Assembly (NCBI GenBank): GCA_024336345.1
Contig: JANFOG010000006.1
Span: 992,001 to 1,056,000, forward strand
Direction of reading: 5' to 3'
From: Mariannaea sp. PMI_226
Taxonomy: Eukaryota; Ascomycota; Sordariomycetes; Hypocreales; Nectriaceae
DNA length: 64,000 bases
Shown one piece after another: positions 29,773 through 33,219 of this stretch (within the stretch, counting starts at the first letter, position 1; each line of letters opens with the position of its first letter). Position numbers and translations under genes: made by a program. The notes beneath the pieces were generated by a model. It made no database searches and was not told the DNA's origin. It worked only from the letters and a program-made list of their open reading frames with translations.

Positions 29773-32700
29773 ATGTCTGAACCTCAGCGGCCACCAACTA
29801 GCGAGTCTGAGGAGGAGGTAGATGATCCAGCCCCTGGTCAAGTCGAGCCTGACGGCATCGTTCGCAGAGCGCTGCTTCATGGATTAAGCTCTGATGACGC
29901 TGAACTGTTCTCTCGCCTCGCCGTCCGACAGCTACTTGAACTACAGATCCGAAAACCAGGTATCCAAGCAATCTCATCGACAAAGCTTGCTGAGCACCTC
30001 AGGGCTGCGGCTGGAAAAAGAAACGATCGAGAGTCCCGATTCGCAGCTCTAGGCTCCCTCGTAGATACCTACGACGCCCAGGGGGAAAGCGATGTAGAAG
30101 TTGTGCCGCCTGATATTTTTGGAGACAACTTTGAAGAAGGGCTCTACGACGAGCAACGCATAAACCGATACCGATTCGATGACAAGGAACTGGAGAAGTG
30201 GTTCGGTGGTAATGACGGGTACCAGCTCAAAATCGAAAATGAGTTTGCCAAGCTCAGCCTCAAAGTCCCTGGAACAGACCTCATCTCCGGGCTCTGTCAA
30301 CACGTCGAACTGGCGGTCGAACTAGGCAAACATCTTGGCCCCAAAGACATCATTAGTCTCTACTCAGTCAGCAAGACATTCAACAGGGTCATCAGTGACA
30401 ATCTACTATCCTCCATCCGTACGTGGATTAATTACCAGGCTCCAGAGGCTGGCAACATCTTCAACTTCAAGTATTACCAAAACGCCCTCACCTACGACCC
30501 AGTTGGCCGGTCTTGGGAAGGCAAGGGAGCAGGCGTCGAACACCATTTCCACCTACCACCCGTACGATTGACCCCTGGTGTGAGATATCTCCAGCTCGTT
30601 TTAGGTCGCCATCGCTACTGCAAGGACATTATTGCAATCATGGCTCGCAATGGCCACCGAATGCCCAAGACCATGTACAGCACCCTCCTTCGCCTATGGT
30701 TTCTGAATGAATTGGCCACAACGCGGCAGAGGATTGGTTGGCTGAAGAATAAGGAGATTTGGACCGAAGAGCATCTCTACAATGCTCAATTCCTCTTTGT
30801 AAAGCTCTTAATGCACTTCAATGACCCAATCTATGGTCCTTCGAGCCACAGCCTCCTTCGGGTTTTCCTGGGCCAGAAGGGGCTGTTCCGTCTGTGGCAG
30901 CTGCTTTTGTGCAAGAAATGGAGAACTCTCATTGAAATCATGGAACTCACTACGTGGTACGACAGTCGACCTACGCTCGGAATGATGCAGTCGCACACAG
31001 ACGAAGATGGCCACATGTATGGTGTGCCCCTGGCTACAGTGGGGAGCGGCCATCGTGAAGGCTGGGGAGCTGGAAACAAGCACTTGATGAGGCCTGATGA
31101 ACTCATCCCCGTCGAAGCAGTCAGACGCGGCCTTCGTCTCGATGAACATATCATGGATATGCTTGTGTGGGGCTATATTGATTTCGAGACTGGAGAGAAT
31201 CTCGTGCCAACCGAGGAGGAAATGTACATCTCCGACTCAGAGAACGCTCTTGCTCATATGGATACGCGACGCCACTGGCGTCGTAAGCATGTTCTGAAGA
31301 AGCGCTGGAACGAGCTCAGTCCCAAGCAAAAACAATCAATCATAGACGAGGAACAGGACGATCGCCTCAGGGCCCTGCAATTCTGTGGTCATGAAGATGA
31401 CGAGCCTGAGGATGGCGAGTAGGACTCTTCATCGTCAAATTATTCTCCTGAGGATGAGATTAGACGCGGGTTCATGATGCGTCCATATCGTCCAGCTGCT
31501 TCTAAGGTCCCCAAGCTCAACGATGGTGTTGAGGCCTGGAAGCGATACATTCGAGAGTCCCTGCTTGGAGCAGGTGTAGCCCCGGAAATAAGCGAAGACC
31601 ATGAGTTGATGAATCAAGCAACAATGGAGTATGCCGATTGCGAGATTGATTCAAAATGGGACTGGGCGGCATGGCTAGAGGGTCGTTGTGTATCCGTGGA
31701 TACCAACGATGAAGACAATGATGGTGATGACGAAAGGGAGAGCGACAATGAGAATACTGAGATCAGCGACAATAACCACGGGAATGATAATGACGACGAC
31801 GACGATGATGACGACGGTGATGACGCCGGCAATGACAAATACAATAACAACAATAATGAAGGAAGCCTGCCAGAAGACAAGGGCAATAGCGCTGGCGGCG
31901 ACAACGGAGGCCGTCACAGAGGCGGAGAAAGCGATGCAAAACGGGATGCCGGAAATGATAGCCAAGAAACTTATTCCCAGCACGCAGAAGATGAGGAAAT
32001 GAAAGACTTACAGGGAGATATTAGTGACAATGCTGGATCGGACAGTGATGTCCAGGACGGCGACTACGTCCTCGAGGACGCAGTCGAAGAGTCTGAACTC
32101 GAGAGCGAGCAGGAAGTCAACAATGGTCGTGAACATACACCACTCGCTGGCAATCAGAGTCAGTATCATCCAGTCCTGCCCAACAAAGTCCCCTTCACTG
32201 TGCAACTCGAGAACCTCCCAGCGAGTCAGTTCAACCCAAGTCATCCACTGGAGGAGTACGGGGCCAGTCTTCAGAACCGCTTCCAAGGAATGAATATCCT
32301 GTCCAGCTCTCGTACACAATCGACTCGAGATAGATTGCAAATATGTGCGGGCCCCAAAGCGAATCAACCTCTGCCGGGACCTTCCCGAGCTCCAATCACC
32401 AAGATATCAGTGCAGCATCCCACTGGGCGAGTTGTAAGCTACACGCACGGAACCGGGAGCCAGAGAGTTATCCAACCTGTACGGCAGTTTCCTGGTCGGC
32501 TCCCTCAGCCGCTGATACCAAACACCGCACGGCTTGGGTTCCAGCAGGATGACGGGAGCCGGCCAGACGGGCCAGGCGCGCCAAGGATCCCAGGTCAAAT
32601 GAATAGTCGACAACGAATGCTTCACCGAGCCAATCAAGTCGCATTTGCACAGGCGCTCGGCGAAGCAGAAATTTTGGAGGAAGACATCTCAGAGGGAGGA

Positions 32701-33219
32701 GACCTCCCTGTATACTCCACTCAAAGAGCGCGACTCGAAGCGGCAGGACAAGGACTTCAACAAGTGTACGATAGGATAGCTACGGGCCATGCATTTGACG
32801 ATACGATGCACACAAGCGTGCCCTTCTTCCTTCATCAGGGACAAGGGTCGCAAGGAGGAGGCTTCATGACGCTCCCACAAGCTCACGTTAATCCAGCTAC
32901 ATCAATTCACCAGCCCAGTTTGACAGAGCGATTCCTTCAATCCCGAGCCGGATACGCACCAGCACCTCGGATCACACTGCAACAGTTACAGGAAGAGCGA
33001 GATGCAGCTCTTCAGGCCAATCCTGGCAATGACACAGTATCCCAGCCGCAGCAGCAAGCTGTGATGCAACTGCAGCAAGAAGCTCAGAACGAACAACTCA
33101 CACTGAACCAGGGATTCCACCATCCAGCTGCTCAGGGACAGGGCATGGAGATTCAGTCTCTACAGGTTCAAGGACAGCAACCACCTCAGGGTACTATACT
33201 CTACGGAAGTCAACCGTAA
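29773..33219 (+). CDS. F-box-like protein of unknown function, frame interrupted by one in-frame TAG
   Basis: From ATG 29773 (ACCATG context) the frame runs 549 codons to TAG at 31420-31422. It then stays open in the same frame for about 598 codons to TAA at 33217-33219. The first half has an acidic start, then GPKDIISLYSVSKTFNRVI, which resembles an F-box helix set, and a helical region with LLRVFLGQKGLFRLW. The second half starts WKRYIRESLLGAG, has a long Asp/Glu/Asn tract (about 31690-31860) and ends Gln-rich. Both halves have coding-like composition, so I treat them as one gene. The TAG may be edited (UAG to UGG), skipped with a 45-nt intron (31419-31463), or be a real truncation; then the second half might start at ATG 31474. 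The 3' end may extend through an intron (33216-33298) to 33401. I do not recognise an orthologue with known function. Confidence 0.65.
31396..31433 (+). promoter_or_regulatory. Possible hairpin enclosing the in-frame TAG
   Basis: GATGACGAG (31396-31404) can pair with CTCTTCATC (31425-31433): five pairs, one C/T mismatch, then three pairs. TAG at 31420-31422 lies in the 20-nt loop. UAG in a hairpin loop is the preferred context of A-to-I mRNA editing reported for Fusarium and Neurospora. A short stem like this can also arise by chance. The functional reading is inference. Confidence 0.3.

What the first reader, a model, noticed from the sequence alone, without database searches (positions are those of the whole stretch)
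29773..33219. F-box-like gene with a single in-frame TAG in the middle, in the context favoured by A-to-I stop editing
Seen: 549 codons, TAG at 31420-31422, then about 598 codons in the same frame, both with coding-like composition. TAG sits in the loop of a possible stem (31396-31404 with 31425-31433). Known: Fusarium, Neurospora and other Sordariomycetes edit A to I in mRNA during sexual development, favouring UAG in hairpin loops and turning UAG stops into UGG (Trp), so some genes give full-length protein only in fruiting bodies. Inference: this may be such a gene, with a ~1150-aa product only after editing. Alternative: a 45-nt in-frame intron, 31419-31463, would also remove the stop.
Basis: partly seen in the sequence, partly recalled or inferred. 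Interest (0 to 1): 0.8.

Follow-up and report, generated by a model that had tools for sequence, protein, structure and literature searches.

The report
Stop codon inside fungal F-box gene
A gene of a Mariannaea fungus carries one stop signal in its middle although the protein family continues past it, and the most likely reason is that the fungus rewrites that stop in its RNA, as relatives are known to do for other genes while they make fruiting bodies; no RNA data were available to prove it.

Summary
Observation confirmed: 549 codons, TAG 31420-31422, 598 codons in frame. The window matches Mariannaea sp. PMI_226 (Nectriaceae). A held gene model ends at the TAG. Hypocrealean homologues continue past it: E562, I563, R565, G566 and W589 are 92-99% conserved and present here, and the post-stop part is no more diverged than in relatives (rank 44 of 132, z -0.14). 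The nearest clade has W, C or Q near this place. A hairpin puts the A in a triloop, but only mildly beyond chance. In the same genome a PUK1-type kinase has in-frame TAGTAG and a RID-type methyltransferase an in-frame TAG, genes of the kinds published as stop-edited. Best reading: a new member of the known class of A-to-I-corrected stops, 0.70. A recent nonsense mutation is the main rival. Lead: some homologues of the Sarocladium clade end in, or lack, the same linker.

The parts
29773..33219 (+). Whole interrupted reading frame: 549 codons + TAG + 598 codons + stop; 1148 aa if UAG is read as Trp
29773..31419 (+). Pre-stop part, 549 aa: conserved, mostly helical core of a Hypocreales F-box-like family
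30328..30408 (+). F-box-like match, residues 186-212 (below Pfam cut-offs); structure rows of F-box proteins align over residues 167-279
31420..31422 (+). In-frame TAG, codon 550; candidate edited A is 31421
31407..31437 (+). Hairpin with inner stem GAGU/ACUC and loop AGG; A31421 is the first base of the triloop
31441..31470 (+). Conserved motif YSPEDEIRRG (residues 557-566) just after the stop; E562, I563, R565, G566 are 92-99% conserved
31525..31566 (+). Predicted helix 585-598 with W589 (99% conserved); block 581-590 has mean pLDDT 91
31657..31677 (+). WDWAAWL, residues 629-635; W631 is the consensus residue (75%)
31693..33216 (+). Tail, residues 641-1148: acidic, then Gln-rich; low model confidence over 641-698 (rest not modelled); the search with the post-stop half found no protein of another genome
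31419..31463 (+).
31999..33219 (+). Separate 406-aa protein held in the protein collection (P0139, Met743 to the end)

Best explanation
This is a single-copy F-box-like gene of Mariannaea sp. PMI_226 whose in-frame UAG is corrected to UGG (Trp) by A-to-I mRNA editing. By analogy with Fusarium and Neurospora, editing would be done by the Tad2-Tad3 tRNA deaminase with Ame1 during sexual development. Without editing the cell makes a 549-residue protein with F-box and core but without the conserved segment 557-635 and the long tail; with editing it makes 1148 residues. Shown here: the reading frame, conservation on both sides of the stop, the failure of GT-AG intron alternatives, a possible hairpin with the A in its loop, and in-frame TAGs in a PUK1-type and a RID-type gene of the same genome. 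Inferred: the editing itself, its stage, and that the F-box part works as an SCF adaptor whose output differs between the two forms.
For: Homologues continue past the stop. In one search (132 rows, this gene included, with both regions filled) the gene carries the consensus residue at 8 of 12 conserved post-stop columns, including E562, I563, R565, G566 and W589, and its post/pre identity ratio is ordinary (rank 44 of 132, z -0.14). One match in its own genome, itself (5 candidates scored). All 17 GT-AG in-frame candidates of 38-250 nt that remove the TAG delete conserved core or E562 and beyond, and none holds CTRAY. Its seven-row clade in the tree (support 93) has W in three, C in two, Q in one and the stop in one. 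Context UAGGA fits the published preference, U at -1 and A or G at +1 and +3 (PMC11156358). A31421 is in a hairpin loop in 0.77 or more of sampled folds in 8 of 10 windows. A kinase with in-frame TAGTAG inside the kinase-model match and a methyltransferase with an in-frame TAG before its methylase domain; DUF726 matches at three places. Held proteins end at the stop (P0122) or begin at a later Met (P0139), like two of the three annotation errors described for the edited gene CHE1 (PMC11169179).
Against: No RNA evidence. Only one genome with this TAG was seen; the nearest relative (Thelonectria, 59% over the core) has Q there, and the tree flags that join as two long branches meeting. Hairpin strength is not exceptional: 30 of 1200 TAGs in the window are at least as good at flank 20, and 237 and 304 of 3000 synonymous recodings fold at least as well in the two narrower windows, 959 of 3000 in the widest. 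With flanks of 30 and 150 the loop share falls to 0.31 and 0.37. At 4 of 12 conserved post-stop columns this gene departs from consensus. SPO22, another published edited gene, has no isolated in-frame TAG in the locus seen. For the RID-type TAG in-frame GT-AG pieces exist, with donors far from consensus, so an intron there is not excluded. The MAT alpha-box was not found, so sexual competence of the strain was not established.
Confidence: 0.7

Rival explanations
1. A recent nonsense mutation in this strain or species: the post-stop part is no longer translated but has not had time to decay, and the 549-residue protein is all that is made.
For: Only one genome with the stop was seen; the linker tolerates change (lengths 0-75 in 134 rows including this gene); TAG is one step from both TGG and CAG; the hairpin is only mildly unusual.
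Against: Single copy, 598 further codons without a stop, ordinary conservation after the stop (this would also hold for a very recent mutation), and the stop is of the type (UAG) that this class of fungi is known to correct, with in-frame TAGs in PUK1-type and RID-type genes here.
Confidence: 0.18
2. The stop lies in a spliced intron (the 45-nt one or another).
For: GTAGGA..GATTAG exists over the TAG in frame.
Against: It deletes E562 and I563 (98% and 92% conserved), holds no CTNAY, and such pieces are common (76 in this ORF). The other 16 GT-AG candidates also delete conserved sequence. The 27 GC-AG candidates were counted but not examined, and pairs of introns were not tried.
Confidence: 0.04
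3. Translational readthrough, or two separate proteins made from the two halves.
For: The collection holds a separate 406-aa protein from Met743.
Against: The conserved residues 557-635 lie between the stop and Met743 and would be in neither protein; UAG-GAC is not a leaky context that I know of (recalled).
Confidence: 0.05
4. Sequencing or assembly error at one base.
For: Only one assembly was seen.
Against: 25 contigs for 42 Mb suggests a long-read assembly (inference); no second stop occurs in the frame.
Confidence: 0.03

Closest known systems
PUK1 and 69 further F. graminearum genes with premature UAG corrected by A-to-I editing (Liu et al. 2016, PMC4817773; abstract, passages and one section seen)
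   Same: UAG inside an otherwise intact, conserved reading frame; U at -1; predicted loop position; automated models mis-handle the stop
   Different: Editing is measured there and only predicted here; 'F-box' does not occur in that main text; its Supplemental Table 4 could not be read, so it is unknown whether the F. graminearum orthologue is listed
CHE1 of F. graminearum (PMC11169179; abstract, passages and one section seen)
   Same: Premature UAG that splits a protein; gene models stop at it, start after it or insert an intron
   Different: CHE1 is a zinc-finger factor edited in hyphae with the stop conserved among Fusarium species; here one species, no known stage
F-box proteins of SCF ubiquitin ligases (Cdc4, Fbs2, FBXO31, FBXW11)

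Membership tests
Fungal A-to-I-corrected premature-stop genes | Premature UAG in frame within conserved coding sequence | tested here: met
Fungal A-to-I-corrected premature-stop genes | U at -1, A or G at +1 and +3 | tested here: met
   UAGGA; preference read in PMC11156358
Fungal A-to-I-corrected premature-stop genes | Edited A in a stable hairpin loop | tested here: inconclusive
   Loop position in most windows, strength only mildly unusual
Fungal A-to-I-corrected premature-stop genes | Stop not removed by a real intron | tested here: met
   17 of 17 GT-AG candidates delete conserved sequence; judged by conservation, not by cDNA; 27 GC-AG candidates not examined
Fungal A-to-I-corrected premature-stop genes | A-to-G reads in perithecia, absent or rare in hyphae | not testable with these tools
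   no RNA reads held
Fungal A-to-I-corrected premature-stop genes | Organism has the editing system | tested here: inconclusive
   DUF726 and deaminase genes present; orthology to Ame1, Tad2 and Tad3 not resolved; in-frame TAGs in PUK1-type and RID-type genes
F-box proteins | F-box sequence over curated cut-off | tested here: not met
   19.8 bits against 24.3 and 18.7 against 20.5
F-box proteins | F-box fold | tested here: inconclusive
F-box proteins | Binding to Skp1 | not testable with these tools
   needs an experiment

The most novel reading that the evidence does not exclude
The acidic linker of this F-box-like family is a repeated site for correctable stops: Mariannaea and, independently, the Sarocladium clade carry a stop in the same linker, so the same protein has been turned more than once into a stage-dependent short/long switch. 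Evidence: P0124, P0126 and P0131 end in the linker; Sarocladium strictum P0063, closest to P0124, lacks the linker while keeping the part after it; P0014 and P0029 of the same clade read through.
Probability: 0.25. Interest if true: 0.65.

Novelty: new member of a known kind. Interest (0 to 1): 0.5.

Why it matters
If edited, it adds a ubiquitin-ligase-like protein to the genes whose full-length form depends on RNA editing, and extends the phenomenon to a genus for which the library search found no report (terms 'Mariannaea' and 'RNA editing', 0 papers). If the linker stop arose more than once in this family, it is a natural test of whether correctable stops are selected as switches or merely tolerated. 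It also shows a gene that held models cut into two pieces, leaving the conserved residues 557-635 in neither.

Tried and rejected
That was wrong: the BLAST rows hid insertions. With full sequences the linker varies in length, and W occurs in it in 31 of 133 homologue rows, at varying distance; corrected.

The hairpin that replaces it was tested against 1200 TAGs of the window and synonymous recodings and is only mildly unusual.

The search with the post-stop half alone found only its own 406-aa piece among 7996 scored candidates, so it gives no independent support; BLAST of residues 640-1148 against the held homologues gave no match better than E 0.62.

Further published edited genes. SPO22: in the frame of its domain the stops next to long open stretches are a TGA and a TAG 13 codons apart (which looks like an intron) and a single TGA; no isolated TAG. 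A guessed 46-nt intron at that single TGA did not keep the frame. DCP1: the domain match has no stop. These are negative or uninformative. For the RID-type TAG, 5 in-frame GT-AG pieces exist, with donors GTTCAA or GTCGAC and one CTRAY each, so an intron is not excluded; for the PUK1-type TAGTAG, 5 exist without CTRAY, and they would delete kinase-domain sequence. The piece before the RID-type TAG matched no Pfam family.

Mating type: no alpha-box match (the control genomes rang nowhere, so absence is not shown); the HMG-box matches were not assigned. One DUF726 match and one deaminase match contain a TAG; a brief look did not resolve them. Viral contigs held no relative of P0126. PDB by sequence: none for the family at E 1. 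Foldseek: none at E 0.001. NCBIfam: none. The intron list had 44 candidates; only the 17 GT-AG ones were judged. Papers: 10 of 10 searches used; main texts or passages only.

Full report
Identity. The window is positions 992001-1056000 of contig C22 (2,788,432 bases) of a 42.2 Mb genome in 25 contigs. A protein whose aligned parts are 98-100% identical to the first half, P0122, comes from a contig of exactly that length and is named Mariannaea sp. PMI_226 BGZ63DRAFT_472458. Mariannaea belongs to Nectriaceae, Hypocreales, Sordariomycetes, a class in which A-to-I mRNA editing is called a common feature (PMC11087585, passages).

Observation. The frame is as reported: ATG 29773, TAG 31420-31422, last codon ending at 33219. 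Codon statistics favour this frame in all three pieces tested. P0122 ends at the TAG and also lacks about codons 63-122. In that N-terminal part (residues 60-129) all but nine positions are filled in 72% or more of the 83 homologue rows that reach it, so the gap looks like a spurious intron. A second held protein, P0139, runs from Met743 to the end. The conserved residues after the stop are therefore in neither.

Conservation past the stop. Two searches gave 151 and 157 homologues at E 0.001 or better among about 8000 scored candidates each, 120 listed each time. Together 137 proteins were held, P0122 included. The first 720 residues of the read-through protein were aligned with 136 of them (P0122 left out as self). 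132 rows including this gene had both regions filled. The ratio of post-stop to pre-stop identity ranks this gene 44 of 132, z -0.14. Of 12 post-stop columns conserved at 70% or more it keeps 8: E562 (98%), I563 (92%), R565 (98%), G566 (99%), P580 (80%), W589 (99%), D609 (72%) and W631 (75%); it departs at 559, 592, 614 and 617. AlphaFold2 on 75 sequences gives mean pLDDT 54 at residues 541-550, where the stop lies, then 75, 85, 75 and 91 for the next four blocks of ten. So the stop sits in a low-confidence linker before a segment that is predicted to be ordered.

Introns. Of 44 in-frame candidates of 38-250 nt that remove the TAG, 17 are GT-AG. All 17 delete either core before residue 537 or E562 and beyond, and none holds CTRAY. 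The ORF contains 76 GT..AG pieces of 42-60 nt and a multiple of three, so such a piece over the TAG is unremarkable. The 27 GC-AG candidates were not judged.

What the codon was. The linker is acidic and variable. Among 133 homologue rows with the E562 column filled, 31 have W in the linker (33 W in 2837 residues). In the tree (137 rows, quick method) this gene joins Thelonectria olida (support 99, flagged as two long branches meeting), and these join Neonectria, Dactylonectria and Ilyonectria (93). In that seven-row clade N. punicea, Dactylonectria and Ilyonectria have W, N. ditissima and P0005 have C, and Thelonectria has Q. W and C stand five residues before the aromatic residue, the stop and Q seven, so a two-residue gap is needed. 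W is a reasonable ancestor but not certain; TGG to TAG and CAG to TAG are each one step.

RNA context. The base before the A is U, followed by G, G, A, which fits the published preference (PMC11156358, parts 1 and 2 of 3 read). The hairpin 31407-31437 places A31421 first in an AGG triloop (-12.4 kcal/mol for the 33-nt piece). The share of sampled folds with the A in a hairpin loop is 1.0, 0.999, 0.778, 0.307, 0.772, 0.934, 0.935, 0.927, 0.786 and 0.367 for flanks of 15, 20, 25, 30, 40, 50, 60, 75, 100 and 150. Among 1200 TAGs of the window, 521 have the A in a loop at flank 20, and 30 have that with equal or lower energy. Synonymous recoding reaches the observed energy in 237, 304 and 959 of 3000 for 5, 7 and 10 codons either side. 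This is weak support.

The genome's other cases. The kinase family gave 137 matches. In the loci held at the time, tandem TAGTAG, TAGTGG or TGGTAG with open frames either side occurred in 7 rows, of which one has kinase-domain flanks: on C12, between DGRCD and SIGIILYECLYG, inside a kinase-model match that reports 2 TAG. PUK1 of F. graminearum has UAGUAG in its kinase domain, both edited (PMC4817773, abstract and passages). A methyltransferase on C19 has a TAG with 158 open codons before and 452 after, the latter with the DNA methylase domain; the rid orthologue is among the 69 further published genes (PMC4817773, section), but the place of its stop was not seen, orthology was not tested by a tree, and an intron over this TAG is not excluded. 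'PUK1-type' and 'RID-type' are therefore resemblances. Loop shares at these sites are 0.43-1.00 and 0.05-0.65. DUF726, the Ame1 domain (PMC11087585), occurs at three places. SPO22 gave no isolated in-frame TAG.

The Sarocladium lead. P0124 and P0126 end after DDYESP and DDYDSP in the same linker; P0131 ends after DDYDGP. Sarocladium strictum P0063, 84% identical to P0124 over the core, has a linker of length 0 but a normal continuation. P0014 and P0029, in the same six-row clade (97), read through. Liu et al. report exons with edited stops wrongly annotated as introns. A real intron just after the shared Pro would also explain these rows. It is a lead only.

Verdict. The main gaps are RNA evidence and a second Mariannaea genome.

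Noticed in passing
G000:C12:4133500-4138500 (L058, reverse strand; contig position about 4135788): PUK1-type kinase with tandem in-frame TAGTAG in the kinase domain
   Followed up: partly
G000:C19:907500-913500 (L056, position 2482): RID-type DNA methyltransferase with an in-frame TAG before the methylase domain; intron not excluded
   Followed up: partly
P0063, P0124, P0126, P0131: Family members of the Sarocladium clade end in, or lack, the same linker that holds the stop here
   Followed up: partly
window 29959-30138 approximately: P0122 lacks about codons 63-122, a stretch mostly filled in the homologue rows that reach it; probably a spurious intron
   Followed up: partly
G000:C12:3241284-3241862 (L003) and G000:C19:149162-149317 (L016): A DUF726 match and a deaminase match each report one TAG inside; intron or in-frame stop not resolved
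   Followed up: no
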